Part shown: positions 7,397 through 34,017 of the stretch, one piece after another
Layout: each line of letters opens with the position of its first letter
Position numbering within the stretch: position 1 is the first letter of the stretch
DNA from: Anaerolineae bacterium
GTDB lineage: Bacteria; Chloroflexota; Anaerolineae; DUEN01
Assembly: GCA_025060615.1 (NCBI GenBank)
Contig: JANXBS010000003.1
Coordinates: 110,441-174,440 of the forward strand
Direction: 5' to 3'
DNA: 64,000 nucleotides
The notes under the pieces: model-generated
What the model saw: only the letters and a program-made list of their open reading frames with translations
Database searches by the model: none
What the model was told of the DNA's origin: nothing
Translations under genes and position numbers: made by a program

Positions 7397-8350
7397 TTAC
7401 CTCTTTGCCATATCACCTTCATAGTATACCCAGCGGTCAGCTAGCCGGAGCTGAATAAGTGTAAGAATCAAGATGATGATAAAGAGAATCCATGCCATTG
7501 CCGCTGCATAACCCATACGTAGTAAAGCGAAACCCTGACGGAACAGGTATAACACATAGAATAATGTCGCATCCTGTGGCCCACCACTAGTCATAATGTA
7601 AGATTGCGTAAATACCTGAAATGACCCGATCATACCCATGATCAGATTAAAGAAGATGACCGGTGTCATCATTGGCACCGTAATATGCCAAAAACGTTGC
7701 CAATGGCTGGCACCATCAATTTCAGCCGCTTCATACAGGCCACGTGGCACACCCTGTAAGCCGGCCAAGAAAATGACTGCCGTGCTTCCTACTCCCCAGA
7801 GGCTCATCAGAATGAAAGCCGGTTTAGCCCACTTAGGATCAACAAGCCAACCTGGCGTAGGCAGTCCAATCGAGCGTAGTAAGTAGTTAATTAACCCGAA
7901 TTGCGGGTTAAATAACCAAATCCACAACAATGACACAGCTACACCAGAAGTTACAGAAGGTAAATAAAACACTGTACGGAAGAAGTTCATGCCAGACAAC
8001 TTGACGTTAAGCAATAAAGAGAGAGCAAAAGCAAAAATAATACCTAAAGGAACGCTGAAAAGTACATAATAAGTCGTATTGTACAATGACAGTCGAAACA
8101 ATCGATCAGCTGTAAACAGGTTTATATAGTTTTTGAGCCCAATCCAACGTGGCGGTGTAATTAGTTCGTAGTCTGTCAAACTTAACCAGAGTGACGCAAC
8201 CATAGGACCCAATGTGAAGACCATAAAACCAATAATCCAGGGAGCAATGAAAAACCAACCCCAGAAGGCTTCGCGGTTAACCAGTCTAGATCGGCGCTTG
8301 AATGCTATTTGTGATGGTATTTTGGCTGCCCTTATCCCGATCAAACCCAT
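7397..8350 (-). CDS. Carbohydrate ABC transporter permease, MalF family
   Basis: This is the first inner-membrane permease of the sugar importer, 317 residues from the ATG at 8350. That ATG has AAGGTGG upstream; an in-frame TTG at 8383 adds 11 unlikely residues. The N-terminal helix AFWGWFFIAPWIIGFMVF is typical of the family, and the EAA loop is LYEAAEIDGASHWQRFWHIT followed by VPMM. Membrane segments continue to the C-terminal RLADRWVYYEG. Partner of the MalG-type protein downstream and the binding protein upstream. Confidence 0.93.
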   Translation of the reverse strand: MGLIGIRAAKIPSQIAFKRRSRLVNREAFWGWFFIAPWIIGFMVFTLGPMVASLWLSLTDYELITPPRWIGLKNYINLFTADRLFRLSLYNTTYYVLFSVPLGIIFAFALSLLLNVKLSGMNFFRTVFYLPSVTSGVAVSLLWIWLFNPQFGLINYLLRSIGLPTPGWLVDPKWAKPAFILMSLWGVGSTAVIFLAGLQGVPRGLYEAAEIDGASHWQRFWHITVPMMTPVIFFNLIMGMIGSFQVFTQSYIMTSGGPQDATLFYVLYLFRQGFALLRMGYAAAMAWILFIIILILTLIQLRLADRWVYYEGDMAKR

Positions 8351-21540: not shown

Positions 21541-21981
21541 ATGAGGCCAGTGCTTCACTTGACTCAAGGTGGCTTTAGCAGCCTAAGCAAGGGTAAGGGC
21601 AAACAACGGCATTTACTGATCCTAGCCGATGAGCGTACACGAGCTGTACAGGTCGTCCGATCAGCTTTCCAAACCCGTGGGTGGATCGTTGACACCATGG
21701 ATCCGACGACGGAGGCTCTAGGCTCTATCAAGCGATGGCTATATGATCTAGTCATTATACAAATCACACAGCCTGACATAGGAGATTTCGCGTTGTGTGA
21801 GGCACTCCGCCAGCGTTCCCGTGTTCCCCTGTTGTTAATCGTCTCCCCAGCGGTCAGTCGAGAGATCATCTCTGCCTTCCATAAAGGTGCCGACGCTTAC
21901 GTGGTAGAGCCCTTTGACCTGCGTGAGCTATTGGCGCGCGCCGAGGCCCTGCTCCGTCGAGCCGAGAAGCGTCTTCTTTAA
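21541..21981 (+). CDS. Degenerate response-regulator receiver protein (pseudo-receiver)
   Basis: A 146-residue protein with a CheY-like fold and no output domain. It aligns by eye with OmpR-type receivers: LLILADE (acidic pocket, Asp30-Glu31), LYDLVIIQITQPD, VPLLLIVSP, GADAYVVEPFDLRELLARAEALLRRA. The residue at the phospho-acceptor position is Gln74 instead of Asp, and the conserved Lys is Glu123. Ser102 keeps the Ser/Thr switch position. It therefore cannot be phosphorylated in the usual way and is probably a protein-binding module. No ribosome site is evident before the ATG at 21541, so the exact start is uncertain. No histidine kinase lies next to it. Confidence 0.75.
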   Translation: MRPVLHLTQGGFSSLSKGKGKQRHLLILADERTRAVQVVRSAFQTRGWIVDTMDPTTEALGSIKRWLYDLVIIQITQPDIGDFALCEALRQRSRVPLLLIVSPAVSREIISAFHKGADAYVVEPFDLRELLARAEALLRRAEKRLL

Positions 21982-22189: not shown

Positions 22190-22750
22190 ATGGCCATCCA
22201 TGTGCGCGGATTACGAGAGCATGAACAGAAACGTTTATGGGAGTGGGCTCAACACCACAACAACGTAAACATGTGGAAACGTGCCCATATCATCTTGCTC
22301 TCTGCGCAGGGCTATACTGTCCCCCAGATCAGCCTTCAGGTTGGGCTGCACCCGATCAACGTGCGCAAATGGATTCACCGTTTCAATCGCTATGGGTTAT
22401 CCGGCCTGCAGTCGGGCAAGTCGCCTGGACGTCCACCGCGCTTCACCGACGAACAAAAGCAGACCATCATCCAACTTGCCCAGGTCAGCCCATCTCGTTT
22501 AGGGCTGCCATTCAGCCGCTGGTCTCTCCAACGCCTGCGCGAATACCTGATCCGATCGGGCGTGGTGGACACTATCAGCGCTGAGACCATCCGACAGATC
22601 CTCCGCTCCACCGAGGATGGGCGCCGGGCACCGAAGGACCTCCAGGTAACGCCCGAGGGCGATCGCGTCCAGAGCGTTCCAGTGGGATTGGACGGAGCCT
22701 CTTCGCCCATACAGCCTATTCCACAGCAACTGGAAGCTAGCTACGCGTAG
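22190..22750 (+). CDS. IS630-type helix-turn-helix protein lacking the DDE domain
   Basis: A 186-residue protein matching only the DNA-binding half of IS630-family transposases. A first HTH (ILLSAQGYTVPQISLQVGLHPINVRKWIHRFNRYGLSGL) is followed by the linker SPGRPPRFTDEQKQTIIQLA and a winged second HTH (FSRWSLQRLREYLIRSGVVDTISAETIRQILR). The catalytic DDE half is absent; instead a polar Pro/Gln-rich tail ends the protein. GAGAGG precedes the ATG and a strong terminator follows, so it is organised like a normal gene. It may be a domesticated DNA-binding protein or a remnant fixed by chance. Confidence 0.75.
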   Translation: MAIHVRGLREHEQKRLWEWAQHHNNVNMWKRAHIILLSAQGYTVPQISLQVGLHPINVRKWIHRFNRYGLSGLQSGKSPGRPPRFTDEQKQTIIQLAQVSPSRLGLPFSRWSLQRLREYLIRSGVVDTISAETIRQILRSTEDGRRAPKDLQVTPEGDRVQSVPVGLDGASSPIQPIPQQLEASYA

Positions 22751-22795
22751 CCGCCGCTCATACCTAGGCCTTATCCTCGTCTAAGGGCCATCGTG

Positions 22796-22823
22796 AGGGG
22801 AGGCTTGGGGCCTCCCCTTTTGT
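22796..22823 (+). terminator. Rho-independent terminator
   Basis: AGGGGAGGC and GCCTCCCCT form a 9-bp stem with a 5-base loop, followed by TTTT. It ends the orphan helix-turn-helix gene and insulates the MazG gene downstream. Confidence 0.88.
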
Positions 22824-22884: not shown

Positions 22885-24231
22885 ATGGCCATCACTATCG
22901 TCGGGCTAGGCCCTGGAGATCCGAAATACCTGACGCAAGAGGCCTGGCGGATCCTAAATGAGGCATCGAGAATCTATGTCCGCACCCGCGAGCATCCCAC
23001 GATCGCCTCGTTTCCTCCGGACAAGGTGATCGGCTTTGACGACGTATACGCCCGCGGAGAGGAGTTTGCAACGGTATATGAGGAGATCGCGCGCCGTGTG
23101 GTGGAGTTGGGCACCCAACCGGAGGGCGTGGTATACGCCGTGCCAGGACACCCGCAAGTTGGAGAGCAGACCACCCGGCGCATCCGAGAGCTAGCCCGGG
23201 AGCGCGGACTTGAGGTGCTCATCGTGGACGGGCTCAGCTTCCTTGAGCCGATGTTCACCGCCTTGAACCTCGATCCTCTAGAGCAGATGGGCCTCCAGAT
23301 CGCTGATGCGATGGTGGTCGCTCGGCGTCACTATCCACCGTTGGAGCCGAGCCGGCCTGCCCTGATCGCTCAATGCGATAGCCGGACCCTCGCCAGCGAT
23401 GTCAAATTGACGCTATTAAATGCATATCCTGAGGATCACCCGGTGACGGTGCTTTCCGGCGCAGGCACCAACATGGTGGCCATCCGCCAGGTGCCGCTGG
23501 CCGAGCTAGACCATAGTAGCCAGTTCGACCATCTGACCACGCTCTATCTGCCGTCCGTCGCGCCAGGTGGATCTGTGACCGATCTGCTAGAGGTGATGGC
23601 ACAGCTGCGCGCTCCAGATGGCTGTCCTTGGGATCGCCAGCAAACCCATGAGAGCCTACGCGCCTACCTGCTAGAAGAGGCTTACGAGGTTCTAGCCGCA
23701 TTGGATTGTGGTGACATGGAGGCGCTACGTGAGGAACTGGGCGATCTGCTATTGCAGGTGGTCTTCCACACTCAGATCGCCTCAGAGGGCTCCGTGTTTC
23801 GTATGGCCGACGTCACACGGGGGATCGTCACCAAACTGTGGCGCCGGCATCCGCATGTCTTCGGCGACCTCTCTGTGAGCGGTGTCGGAGAGGTGCTTCA
23901 CAACTGGGAGGCCATTAAGGCAGACGAGCGCAACCAAAAATCTGACCGACAGGGGCCGCTCTCGGGCATCCCGCAGGGATTGCCGGCCTTAGCTCAAGCG
24001 CAGGCCTACTTGGCCCGGGCGGAGCGGCTAGGGCTCAGCCAACCGGTTGACCTCTCTACGATCGCAACATGGCTCTTGGAGTTGGACCGCGCGCCCAATG
24101 CGGAGGAACTTCTGGGACAGGTCCTGCTCTCCCTAGCGAATTGGGCTCAGCAGCATAATCTGGACGCCGAGAGTGCCCTGCGCACAGTCAACGCCCGGCT
24201 GGCCGCCCAGGTGAACCGACATTACGCTTGA
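22885..24231 (+). CDS. mazG: Tetrapyrrole methylase domain - MazG nucleoside triphosphate pyrophosphohydrolase fusion (YabN-like)
   Basis: A 448-residue two-domain protein like Bacillus YabN. The N-terminal half (about 1-215) is a SAM-dependent tetrapyrrole methylase fold opening with ITIVGLGPGDPKYLT and including VVYAVPGHPQVGE. The C-terminal half (about 225-400) is MazG, with PDGCPWDRQQTHESL, the metal-binding EEAYEVLAALD and REELGDLLLQVVFH motifs and KLWRRHPHVFGD. MazG hydrolyses abnormal or excess NTPs to NMP and pyrophosphate; the methylase half has no confirmed substrate in this family. The ATG at 22885 follows AGGAGAG; an earlier ATG at 22822 lies inside the promoter region. Confidence 0.92.
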   Translation: MAITIVGLGPGDPKYLTQEAWRILNEASRIYVRTREHPTIASFPPDKVIGFDDVYARGEEFATVYEEIARRVVELGTQPEGVVYAVPGHPQVGEQTTRRIRELARERGLEVLIVDGLSFLEPMFTALNLDPLEQMGLQIADAMVVARRHYPPLEPSRPALIAQCDSRTLASDVKLTLLNAYPEDHPVTVLSGAGTNMVAIRQVPLAELDHSSQFDHLTTLYLPSVAPGGSVTDLLEVMAQLRAPDGCPWDRQQTHESLRAYLLEEAYEVLAALDCGDMEALREELGDLLLQVVFHTQIASEGSVFRMADVTRGIVTKLWRRHPHVFGDLSVSGVGEVLHNWEAIKADERNQKSDRQGPLSGIPQGLPALAQAQAYLARAERLGLSQPVDLSTIATWLLELDRAPNAEELLGQVLLSLANWAQQHNLDAESALRTVNARLAAQVNRHYA

Positions 24232-30969: not shown

Positions 30970-32532
30970 ATGCTGTGCGAGCAGGTGAACTCGTTATGCC
31001 TGACTTACGGCTTTGCCTTTTCCATCAGGGGGCTGGCCATGTTTGCGCTGGGACTGGCGGTGCTCCTCGCCCTTCCACGCAGCCGCGAGATCCCCTTAGG
31101 TTGGTCGTTTCGCTACGTGGGCGCCTTTGCGCTCGCCCAGAGCGCATCGGTATGGTTGGGGGCTGTGCAATCCTGGCGGCTGATCGAATGGCTCCCACTG
31201 GAATATCTTCGCACGGCTCTTCGCATCCTCGCTGCCACAATCCTTCTCCAGTTCGGATGTTATGTGCTGGCCCAGCGTGTCCATCGGCTGGCCGTTTGGC
31301 TTCGGCGATTGCCCTTCCTGGCTGCCTTGATCGTAAGCGCCTGGACCGGGATAATATGGGCCAGCCACGCGGCTCATTGGAATGAACTGGCGCGCTGGAT
31401 CGCCCTGACCTCGCTGTTTCTGCCAGGTATGGCGTTGGCCGCCATGGCTTTTTGGCGCATTCACGCAGAGATGGGCGCTGTTGGCCTCAAAGTGCCCGAC
31501 CGAGATGCTAAGCTGGTGGCTCTCGTGATCATCGCCGAAGCGGTGGTCGTAGTCCTGATCGTGGCCCCTGCACCATGGGCGCGTCCCTTAGCCCCTTGGG
31601 CGCAAGGGATCATCTGGTTTGCTGAATTCGCCCGTCCCTGGGTCACGGTGGCGCTGGCCGTGGCCGTCATCCGCTTTCTACGGCTATTTGACCTTGAACG
31701 TGAGCGGCGGCTGGAATCCATGGCGCGCGAACGCCAGGAGGCGTTGAAAAAGGCGGAAGAAGCTCAGCTCCGATTGGAGCAGGAGATCGCACGGTGGAGC
31801 GCGCAACTGGAAGCCCTCACCCGGCGGCGCATCGGACGGGAAGTCTCATCAGAGCCCGGGATGGCACGCTGGCGGGAGAGCGTCGAAGCGGTCGCCGTGG
31901 CGCGGGAGCGCGAGCGAATCAGCCAGGAGCTGCATGATGGGATTGCACAGCTCCTGGGCTATCTTCACCTGCGGGTGCAGGCGGCCCGGCGCGCTTTGGT
32001 GGCCGGTCGGCTGTCAGAAGCGGCGCTGACCTTACAGCAGCTCGAACGACTGGCGGAGACGGCTTATTCTGAGGTGCGGGAAGCCGTCCTGGGATTGCGG
32101 TTAGCCAGCGTCCCTGACATGGAGGAAGCTATCCGGGAATACATAGAGCATTTTCAAGCGCGCTGGAACGTGAATGTGGAATGGGCCATAAAGGACCCTC
32201 AGGCGTTGAGATTGTCGCCGCTGGTGGAGCTGCAACTGTTGCGAGTGCTTCAGGAGGCCCTGACCAACGTGCGCAAGCACGCTCAGGCCCGTCAGGCCCA
32301 CATCACGCTGCAAGCAGACGATGGCTGGATGGTCATGACCGTCGAGGATGATGGCATTGGGTTCGACCCGGAAGAGATCCGGATGGGACATTTCGGATTG
32401 CGTTTGATGCGGGAGCGTTGCGAGAGCGTGGGGGGAAGCCTGCGCGTCGAGAGCACGCCGGGACGGGGCACACGAATCGAGGCACGATTGCCGTTAAAAG
32501 GCCTCTCTGGGGCGGAGAGGGGGACGCGATGA
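30970..32532 (+). CDS. Membrane sensor histidine kinase, NarX/DegS-type (HisKA_3)
   Basis: A 520-residue two-component kinase. The N-terminal half (about 1-245) has roughly seven hydrophobic segments without a large extracellular domain, suggesting sensing within the membrane. A short coiled coil (LERERRLESMARERQEALKKAEEAQ) leads to the HisKA_3 H-box ARERERISQELHDGIAQLLGYL, with the phospho-acceptor His near residue 321. The HATPase domain has ALTNVRKHAQA, VEDDGIGFDPE and GHFGLRLMRERCESVGGSL. AAGGAGAGG precedes the ATG. Its stop overlaps the response-regulator start (ATGA), so the pair is co-expressed. It sits between the hydrogenase maturation genes and the Hdr/Etf/Mvh cluster and may regulate either. 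Confidence 0.93.
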   Translation: MLCEQVNSLCLTYGFAFSIRGLAMFALGLAVLLALPRSREIPLGWSFRYVGAFALAQSASVWLGAVQSWRLIEWLPLEYLRTALRILAATILLQFGCYVLAQRVHRLAVWLRRLPFLAALIVSAWTGIIWASHAAHWNELARWIALTSLFLPGMALAAMAFWRIHAEMGAVGLKVPDRDAKLVALVIIAEAVVVVLIVAPAPWARPLAPWAQGIIWFAEFARPWVTVALAVAVIRFLRLFDLERERRLESMARERQEALKKAEEAQLRLEQEIARWSAQLEALTRRRIGREVSSEPGMARWRESVEAVAVARERERISQELHDGIAQLLGYLHLRVQAARRALVAGRLSEAALTLQQLERLAETAYSEVREAVLGLRLASVPDMEEAIREYIEHFQARWNVNVEWAIKDPQALRLSPLVELQLLRVLQEALTNVRKHAQARQAHITLQADDGWMVMTVEDDGIGFDPEEIRMGHFGLRLMRERCESVGGSLRVESTPGRGTRIEARLPLKGLSGAERGTR

Positions 32533-33194
32533 GACCCATTAGCGTGCTGATAGTGGACGATCACGCGCTGTTTCGCCAGGGTTTGATGAACCTGCTGCGC
32601 GAGTTCAAAGAAATCCGGGTTGTCGGCGAGGCCGCTGACGCTGAGGCGGCGCTGCACCTTGCACGCCAGCTTCGTCCAGACCTGATCTTGATGGATATTC
32701 GGATGCCCGGTCTAGCTGCGTTTGCTGCCACCCGGCAGATCAAACAAGAGCTACCGCAAGCCAAGGTGGTGGTTCTCACCGCGTCCGAGGAAGAGAAAGA
32801 CCTGTTCGAGGCGATCAAGGCCGGCGCCGAAGGATATATCCTCAAGGACACGCGGATCGAGGAGCTGGTACGGATGCTCACCGGCGTCTTTCGCGGCGAG
32901 GCGCCGATTTCCGGCGTGATGGCGGCTAAAATGCTGGGCGAGTTCGCGCGCAGGGCGCAGCACAAGGAGAGAAGGCCGGATCCCACCGAGCTGACGGCAA
33001 GGGAACGCGAGGTGCTCTCGTTGGTGGCAAAAGGAGCATCCAACTTTGAGATCTCTCGGCAATTGCATATCAGCGAGAACACGGTCAAGAAGCATCTGCG
33101 CAGCATCCTGGACAAATTGCACCTCGAGAACCGGGTCCAGGCGGCCATCTACGCATTGCAGGAAGACTTGATAGGCAGTACACACTTGGAGTAA
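32529..33194 (+). CDS. NarL/LuxR-family response regulator
   Basis: A 221-residue DNA-binding response regulator. The receiver has the acidic pocket VDDH (Asp10-Asp11), the phospho-acceptor in LILMDIRMPG (Asp56) and the conserved Lys106 (GYILKD). The C-terminal LuxR-type HTH (about 155-215) reads LTAREREVLSLVAKGASNFEISRQLHISENTVKKHLRSIL. The ATG overlaps the kinase stop codon and follows GGAGAGGGGG; a longer frame from 32418 is an artefact inside the kinase gene. All phosphorylation residues are intact, unlike the receiver at 21.5 kb. Confidence 0.94.
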   Translation: MRPISVLIVDDHALFRQGLMNLLREFKEIRVVGEAADAEAALHLARQLRPDLILMDIRMPGLAAFAATRQIKQELPQAKVVVLTASEEEKDLFEAIKAGAEGYILKDTRIEELVRMLTGVFRGEAPISGVMAAKMLGEFARRAQHKERRPDPTELTAREREVLSLVAKGASNFEISRQLHISENTVKKHLRSILDKLHLENRVQAAIYALQEDLIGSTHLE

Positions 33195-33555: not shown

Positions 33556-34017
33556 GTGGTGCCGCTAGCGCTCTTCCGTCAATTCCCTTTTTTCGCATCT
33601 GTAGAAGACAGCCGGCTCACACGACTAGCCGCGATCTCAGCAGAGATCTCGTATGAGCCAGGTGAGGCTATCTTTGAAGAGGGCGCTTCAGCGGATCGGC
33701 TGTACCTGGTCCTCAGTGGGGCGATCGAGCTGTGGATGCACATGGACGGGCTGGGGCGCCCCATTCCGGTAGGCGTTGTGGGTCCCGGAGAGGTCGTCGG
33801 ATGGTCCACGTTGGTGCCGCCGCACCAATACACGGCTCGCGGGGAGGCGCGTGGCCTGACCCGAGTGGTAGCTGTGGACAGTGTGCGGCTACGACGACTG
33901 GTGGAGGAAGACCACTCGTTGGGATACTACCTGTATCGCCAGGTAGCGAGCGTGATCGCGCAGCGTTTGCATGATTTGCGACTGCGTTTGGCCAGCCTGT
34001 TGAGAACACCGGCCTAA
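33556..34017 (+). CDS. Cyclic-nucleotide-binding domain protein without DNA-binding domain
   Basis: A 153-residue protein made of a Crp/Fnr-type cNMP-binding beta-roll: FRQFPFFASVEDSRLTRLAAI, PGEAIFEEGASADRLYLVLSGAIEL and GPGEVVGWSTLVPPHQYTARGEA, then a C-terminal helix. The phosphate-binding cassette is present but atypical (GWSTL in place of GE-x-AL). No helix-turn-helix follows, so it is not a classical Crp regulator and may instead be a regulatory subunit. The GTG start follows GGAGG. It is the first gene of the Fe-S/Etf/Hdr/hydrogenase cluster, 13 bases upstream of the HdrD-like gene. Confidence 0.85.
   Translation: MVPLALFRQFPFFASVEDSRLTRLAAISAEISYEPGEAIFEEGASADRLYLVLSGAIELWMHMDGLGRPIPVGVVGPGEVVGWSTLVPPHQYTARGEARGLTRVVAVDSVRLRRLVEEDHSLGYYLYRQVASVIAQRLHDLRLRLASLLRTPA

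What the first reader, a model, noticed from the sequence alone, without database searches (positions are those of the whole stretch)
21541..21981. Stand-alone pseudo-receiver with Gln at the phosphorylation site and Glu for the conserved Lys
The fold is clearly CheY/OmpR-like, but the two residues most essential for phosphorylation are changed (Q74, E123). There is no output domain or partner kinase. Such phosphorylation-independent receivers often bind proteins or small molecules.
Basis: partly seen in the sequence, partly recalled or inferred. Interest (0 to 1): 0.5.

Follow-up and report, generated by a model that had tools for sequence, protein, structure and literature searches.

The report
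Stand-alone pseudo-receiver beside a DNA-binding gene
This gene makes a small signalling domain that has lost the parts needed to accept a phosphate yet has been kept by related bacteria, usually next to the same DNA-binding gene, so it probably works by sticking to another protein rather than as a phosphate switch.

Summary
Confirmed and extended. Window 21541-21981 (+) encodes a 146-aa receiver-fold protein (PF00072 E 5.5e-11; AF2 pLDDT 85) with no output domain, Gln74 at the phospho-Asp site and Glu123 at the Lys site. It is not decay: all four genomes held for its family carry an intact orthologue (45-49% identical), none with Asp or Lys, under purifying selection. I collected 15 members from four families of the class: Lys is absent in 15 of 15 and the Asp site is D9/E4/Q1/N1, whereas 40 canonical receivers of the class have both in 40 of 40. 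Three residues of the OmpR/PhoB dimer face stay invariant.

A stand-alone IS630-type helix-turn-helix protein lies downstream on the same strand, 0.2-2.9 kb away, in 11 of 12 members whose contig allows the test. Best explanation: a phosphorylation-independent pseudo-receiver acting by protein contact, with that protein as leading candidate partner (not shown). Pseudo-receivers are a known kind whose mechanisms are mostly unknown (PMC12632262).

The parts
21541..21981 (+). Pseudo-receiver (PsR) gene, 146 aa; receiver fold residues about 22-145
21760..21762 (+). Codon CAA, Gln74 at the phospho-Asp position (Glu in the three other family members and in G028; Asp in nine and Asn in one of the more distant members)
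21907..21909 (+). Codon GAG, Glu123 at the conserved Lys position (0 of 15 members have Lys)
22190..22750 (+). Stand-alone two-HTH protein, 186 aa, like the N-terminal DNA-binding part of IS630 transposases without the DDE catalytic domain; candidate partner, conserved neighbour
22795..22819 (+). Intrinsic-terminator-like hairpin (11 pairs, T-rich tail) that separates the HTH gene from the MazG gene; the scan's count was not above shuffles, so placement and stem length are the only support
22885..24231 (+). YabN-type tetrapyrrole methylase/MazG pyrophosphohydrolase, syntenic neighbour in G000, G001, G002, G028 (listed ORF begins at GTG 22822; ATG 22885 follows a Shine-Dalgarno-like purine stretch). 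Probably a separate transcription unit

Best explanation
21541-21981 encodes a member of a conserved family of stand-alone pseudo-receivers that arose from an OmpR/PhoB-type receiver by loss of the output domain and of the phosphotransfer pocket. It is not switched by phosphorylation. It most likely works as a constitutively folded protein-contact module through the retained part of the alpha4-beta5-alpha5 face, either as a homodimer or by binding a partner. The best candidate partner is the stand-alone IS630-type helix-turn-helix protein encoded just downstream, which would make the pair a regulator split into two genes. Its activity would then be set by expression level or by an unknown ligand or partner. 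SHOWN: the domain, the pocket losses, the conservation, the predicted fold, the conserved neighbourhood. INFERRED: phosphorylation independence (from the residues), use of the 4-5-5 face (from residue conservation), partnership with the HTH protein (from gene order). My separate odds: true conserved pseudo-receiver 0.95; phosphorylation-independent 0.9; acts through protein contact 0.7; HTH protein is a direct partner 0.35.
For: Domain and fold: PF00072; AF2 model pLDDT 85; best PDB rows are OmpR/PhoB-type receivers, PmrA Z 17.9 / 2.6 A / 125 residues and KdpE Z 17.7 / 1.9 A / 118; best PDB sequence hits are YycF, ArlR and MtrA. Pocket: Lys 0 of 15 against 40 of 40 canonical receivers of the class; Asp 9 of 15 against 40 of 40; the acidic-pair columns are changed in most members. 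Selection: in 10 of 10 pairs of five genomes pN (0.18-0.45) lies well below pS (0.68-0.83); no stop inside in the five closest copies. Dimer-face residues equivalent to PhoB D100, R115 and R122 (residue names recalled) are invariant in 15 of 15, although the pocket is gone. Neighbourhood: the HTH gene lies on the same strand 208-2901 bp downstream in 11 of 12 testable members from three families. In the three members whose contig ends beside the PsR, no HTH was found elsewhere either, as expected if it lies in the gap. In the window genome and in the f31 family most of the wider ancestral neighbourhood has dispersed, yet PsR and HTH stay close.
Against: The wider block (a TgpA-like transglutaminase, a ~100-aa protein, an FmdB-like zinc ribbon, HTH, MazG) is itself conserved in parts in f1, f30 and f38, so part of the PsR-HTH linkage may be plain gene-order inheritance. 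Gaps of 208-2901 bp, with a subtilase gene between the two in three f31 loci, argue against a tight operon. The HTH persists without a PsR in f30, in one f38 genus and in one f31 genome, and G028 has a PsR with no HTH found. One dimer-face Asp (PhoB D101) is Ala or Gly in 15 of 15 against D in 39 of 40 canonical receivers, and the Glu (PhoB E111) is lost in the five f38 members. Nine of 15 relatives keep the Asp, so phosphorylation of those is not formally excluded. No interaction was tested.
Confidence: 0.5

Rival explanations
1. The pseudo-receiver heterodimerises with a full-length OmpR/PhoB response regulator encoded elsewhere and tunes or blocks it, as WhiI does with BldM or as suggested for CmrT.
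For: The three invariant 4-5-5 face residues are shared with ordinary OmpR/PhoB receivers; the genome holds 11 other receivers at E below 1e-9, in open frames of 230-530 aa; precedent in PMC12632262 section 19.
Against: It does not explain the conserved DNA-binding neighbour; no full-length regulator is a shared neighbour in the loci compared; the dimer-face Asp101 equivalent is lost in 15 of 15.
Confidence: 0.25
2. The remodelled pocket or its surface binds a small molecule or nucleotide, so the domain is a one-component ligand sensor acting on its partner.
For: ALR pockets are proposed to take other inputs (PMC4395418 abstract and section 7); [quoted passage not shown] the MazG neighbour is a nucleotide enzyme.
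Against: Pocket residues vary freely among relatives (Q/E/D/N; E/A/T/V/Q/Y/L), which is not what a conserved ligand site should show; MazG has its own start region behind a terminator-like hairpin.
Confidence: 0.12
3. The protein sequesters a histidine kinase by docking like a receiver without accepting phosphate.
For: Receiver fold without phosphotransfer residues; PMC12632262 section 19 mentions kinase-binding competitors as a hypothesis.
Against: I saw no kinase gene as a conserved neighbour of the PsR; the kinase-linked HTH genes (subtype II) have no PsR in any of the 10 loci examined.
Confidence: 0.1
4. It is a decaying response-regulator gene.
For: The output domain and most pocket residues are gone; Gln at the site is unique to this genome in the set.
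Against: Intact orthologues in all four genomes held for the family, purifying selection, relatives in other families all lacking Lys.
Confidence: 0.03

Closest known systems
Bacterial pseudo-receivers / atypical response regulators (review PMC12632262)
   Same: Recognised as a receiver by PF00072 but lacking the residues for phosphotransfer; orphan, no kinase beside it
   Different: Stand-alone instead of fused to an output domain; loses Lys in 15 of 15, whereas D, T and K each survive in about 65% of PsRs (section 7)
Aspartate-less receivers (ALR), RitR type (PMC4395418)
   Same: No phospho-Asp in this copy; OmpR/PhoB-type receiver; dimer-face residues partly kept. Glu, found in the four nearest relatives, is also the commonest ALR substitution (26%, section 7)
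   Different: No DNA-binding domain; pocket Lys lost although 70% of ALRs keep a basic residue there; the family as a whole is not Asp-less (9 of 15 keep Asp)
OmpR/PhoB response regulators (KdpE, PmrA, ArcA, YycF)
   Same: Closest fold and sequence; shared Gly-Ala-Asp, Arg and helix-5 motifs
   Different: No winged-helix output domain; phosphotransfer pocket destroyed
BldM-WhiI of Streptomyces
   Same: Phosphorylation-independent regulators acting by dimer formation (PMC12632262 section 19)
   Different: Both of those carry their own DNA-binding domains (recalled); here the candidate DNA-binding part is a separate gene of IS630 type

Membership tests
Pseudo-receiver (PsR) | Identified computationally as a receiver domain | tested here: met
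   PF00072 43.1 bits, cut-off 30.2; fold Z 17.9 to PmrA
Pseudo-receiver (PsR) | Lacks key residues of the phosphotransfer pocket | tested here: met
   Q74, V101, E123, A29; Lys absent in 15 of 15 members, present in 40 of 40 controls
Pseudo-receiver (PsR) | Works without phosphorylation | not testable with these tools
   needs biochemistry
Aspartate-less receiver (ALR) | No Asp at the phosphorylation site | tested here: met
   Gln74 in the window protein; Glu in the four nearest relatives. The wider family does not meet it: Asp in 9 of 15
OmpR/PhoB response regulator | Receiver domain of the OmpR/PhoB type | tested here: met
   best NCBIfam and PDB matches are OmpR/PhoB regulators
OmpR/PhoB response regulator | C-terminal winged-helix DNA-binding domain in the same protein | tested here: not met
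   146 aa, only PF00072; open frame 148 aa; model ends with helix 5
Canonical single-domain (CheY-like) response regulator | Intact acidic pair, Asp, Thr/Ser and Lys | tested here: not met
IS630 transposase (neighbour 22190-22750) | Full transposase with DDE catalytic domain | tested here: not met
   NF033545 matches only positions 1-107 of 299 and is below its cut-off (73.6 against 100 bits); 186 aa, HTH families only

The most novel reading that the evidence does not exclude
A response regulator split into two genes: a phosphorylation-dead OmpR/PhoB-type receiver that works in trans on a DNA-binding protein taken over from the end-binding part of an IS630-type transposase, kept as a pair across several families of one bacterial class.
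Probability: 0.3. Interest if true: 0.62.

Novelty: new member of a known kind. Interest (0 to 1): 0.42.

Why it matters
How bacterial pseudo-receivers are activated is described as largely unknown (PMC12632262 abstract and section 22). This family offers a natural series in which the acceptor site is D, N, E or Q while Lys is always absent and three dimer-face residues never change, and it comes with a named candidate partner next door. That makes two questions testable in small soluble proteins: does the acceptor residue matter at all, and can a receiver regulate a DNA-binding protein encoded by another gene.

Tried and rejected
Decay: rejected on orthologues and selection. Glu as a simple phosphomimic in the family: weakened, because the Lys that would bind it is absent in 15 of 15, Thr/Ser is kept in only five or six of 15 depending on the alignment, and the window copy has uncharged Gln. 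The genome-contig scan with the single protein gave only distant receivers (5 loci, 25-26% identity). A phylum-wide profile search of 400 genomes gave the window itself and one ordinary-length hit of 261 aa, so I found no member outside the class in that sample. Profile searches score only the best 9 or 10 candidates per genome, so further degenerate members may be missed; the weakest accepted member (115.5 bits) lies just above the first rejected hit (113.5 bits, a 258-aa frame), and the f38 members were accepted on stand-alone length and neighbourhood as well. f38 proteins are barely or not seen by Pfam (18.8 bits at best, none for two of the three tested) but match the other members by profile comparison (probability 96.6, E 5.6e-10) and fold alike (pLDDT 74.8, Z 15.7 to PmrA). 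The tree puts f1, f26 and f31 members together (98/81) and f38 on a separate long branch; a single clade is not rejected (p-AU 0.607) but not shown. In one search locus L058 was labelled canonical by mistake; it is the G130 member itself, and I removed it before (41 to 40 controls). The 40 controls were top matches of earlier searches, not a random sample. No Rfam match around the gene. Promoter scan near chance level. Literature searches for this class with receivers or IS630, for stand-alone pseudo-receivers with HTH, for domesticated IS630 regulators and for single-domain pseudo-receiver heterodimers listed no title or abstract that describes this family; those searches cover open-licence papers only and I read listings, not the papers. 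Papers seen: PMC12632262 outline, abstract, sections 4, 7, 18, 19, 22 and found passages; PMC4395418 outline, abstract, sections 7, 10 and part 1 of section 16; PMC7010744 and PMC2170065 abstract starts in listings only.

Full report
WHAT IS THERE. The ORF 21541-21981 (+) is real and exactly as described: 146 aa, Gln at residue 74 and Glu at residue 123. Pfam sees only a receiver domain, residues 27-134. AF2, using the 15-member alignment, gives a confident (beta-alpha)5 fold, pLDDT 85, with strand 1 at 24-28, strand 3 at 70-75, strand 5 at 119-122 and helix 5 at 127-145; residues 6-18 are unstructured. The nearest solved structures are OmpR/PhoB-type receivers: PmrA Z 17.9, 2.6 A over 125 residues; KdpE Z 17.7, 1.9 A over 118. 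By sequence profile the best PDB matches are YycF, ArlR and MtrA. Nothing follows the receiver in the frame, so there is no output domain.

THE POCKET. Against the usual receiver set (positions named as in PMC12632262, section 7), the protein has Ala29 and Asp30 for the acidic pair, Gln74 for the phospho-Asp, Val101 for Thr/Ser, Ser102 at T+1 and Glu123 for Lys; Tyr120 (K-3), Pro124 and Phe125 are kept. The acidic pair is the one uncertain item: a different alignment shifts it by one residue.

ORTHOLOGUES. In a search of the window genome and its relatives (60 genomes), the three other genomes of the window's family (G001, G002, G003) hold a stand-alone copy that is 47-53% identical in the search hits (45-49% over the aligned proteins), and G028 of another family one at 37-38%. 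In the first class-wide search of 396 genomes these five score 204-234 bits and the next hit 107. All four orthologues have Glu at the acceptor site and Glu, Glu, Ala or Thr at the Lys site. Across the 10 pairs of these five copies pN is 0.18-0.45 and pS 0.68-0.83; synonymous sites are mostly saturated, so no exact ratio is claimed.

A WIDER FAMILY. Following the downstream neighbour led to more members. The gene 22190-22750 encodes a stand-alone protein with HTH modules (PF13565, PF13551). It resembles the first 107 of 299 positions of the IS630 transposase model, below that model's cut-off, and has no catalytic domain. The N-terminal two-HTH domain of the ISY100 transposase, of the same superfamily, binds its terminal repeats (PMC2170065, abstract in the listing). 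Relatives at E up to 1e-30 occur in 51 of 298 class genomes. I read 20 of their neighbourhoods, outside family f1. Ten are of the window's subtype, and five of these ten have a stand-alone degenerate receiver upstream on the same strand; one of the five, G130, had been chosen because a receiver was already known there, so 4 of 9 without prior knowledge. The other ten are a second subtype, and in none of these did I find such a receiver; one of those contigs ends 129 bp upstream. A profile of ten members then found five more in 396 genomes: G065, G148, G340, G378, G393. Total 15 members: four in family f1, one in f26, five in f31, five in f38.

WHAT IS FIXED AND WHAT IS NOT. In the 15 members the acceptor site is D9, E4, Q1, N1 and the Lys site A5, E3, L3, T1, V1, Q1, Y1; in 40 ordinary receivers of the class Asp and Lys are each 40 of 40. 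Thr/Ser is kept in five or six of 15. Invariant in 15 of 15 are Arg90, Gly116, Asp118, Arg133 and Arg140. Asp118, Arg133 and Arg140 correspond to PhoB D100, R115 and R122 in the alpha4-beta5-alpha5 dimer face (PhoB residue names recalled; that receivers and ALRs dimerise through this face is in PMC4395418 section 16). Against this, the neighbouring PhoB D101 equivalent is Ala or Gly in 15 of 15, and the E111 equivalent is lost in the five f38 members, so the face is kept only in part. The tree joins f1, f26 and f31 (98/81) and leaves f38 on a long branch; one clade is not rejected, p-AU 0.607.

NEIGHBOURHOOD. The HTH gene lies downstream of the PsR on the same strand at 208, 444, 704, 2301, 2306, 256, 2901, 363, 336, 366 and 408 bp in the window, G002, G001, G130, G192, G164, G065, G116, G153, G340 and G378. 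In G003, G148 and G393 the contig ends beside the PsR, and a search of these genomes found no HTH elsewhere (that call had no positive control, though the same kind of query found the gene in 51 genomes). G028 has a PsR and MazG but no HTH found. So 11 of 12 testable members have it. The larger ancestral block, seen in parts in f1, f30 and f38, also holds a TgpA-like transglutaminase, a 630-750 aa protein, a ~100-aa protein without a Pfam or NCBIfam match in the copies tested, and an FmdB-like zinc ribbon; G032 (f30) and three genomes of one f38 genus keep parts of this block but have no PsR there. In the window genome the ~100-aa gene has moved to another contig while PsR, HTH and MazG remain together. 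In three of the four f31 loci with an HTH a subtilase gene lies between PsR and HTH (Pfam for one; the other two are 52-54% identical to it). I read all this as support for, not proof of, a functional link. MazG has a terminator-like hairpin and its own ribosome-binding site in front and is probably a bystander.

MECHANISM. With Lys absent throughout and the rest of the pocket changed, phosphorylation control is very unlikely, and Glu as a phosphomimic is also unlikely because its presumed binding partners T and K (PMC12632262 section 18) are missing in f1. Q74 then looks like one more neutral or subtly shaped change at a retired site. What selection has kept is the fold and part of the dimer face. 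The simplest reading is a protein-contact module, homodimeric or bound to a partner, with the HTH protein as the first candidate and a full-length OmpR/PhoB regulator as the second.

KNOWN OR NEW. Pseudo-receivers make up roughly 6% of bacterial receivers, and their mechanisms are mostly unknown (PMC12632262 abstract and sections 4 and 22). This is a new orthologous family of that known kind. Its stand-alone form, the complete loss of Lys and the linkage to a separate DNA-binding gene are its distinguishing marks. I found no paper on it in the listings.

Noticed in passing
L025:10550-10846, L026:1317-1625, L090:7184-7570, L094:5001-5330, L143:7116-7526; G000:C11:77883-78176: A ~100-aa protein (begins MVRLLMxWDIK) is about 55-95% conserved across families of the class, has no match in Pfam or NCBIfam for the copies tested, and recurs beside the PsR or HTH gene; it may be a further part of the same system.
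   Followed up: partly
L102-L108 (families f42, f8, f23, f18 and others): A second subtype of the stand-alone HTH protein follows a GAF-PAS-HisKA-HATPase kinase (confirmed by Pfam in the four tested: L102, L103, L105, L107) and in several loci precedes genes that look like B12-binding radical SAM enzymes (that label is my reading of the sequences).
   Followed up: partly
window 30970-33194: NarX-like histidine kinase and NarL-like response regulator, followed by a cyclic-nucleotide-binding domain protein at 33556-34017.
   Followed up: no
L143:6344-6829 (G378): An f38 member with Asn at the acceptor site while its closest relatives have Asp: an independent loss inside the family.
   Followed up: no
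L099 about 7588-7990 (G164): This f31 member has an in-frame stop just before its first strand and no clear start codon; it may be a start-site problem, a sequence error or a decaying copy.
   Followed up: no
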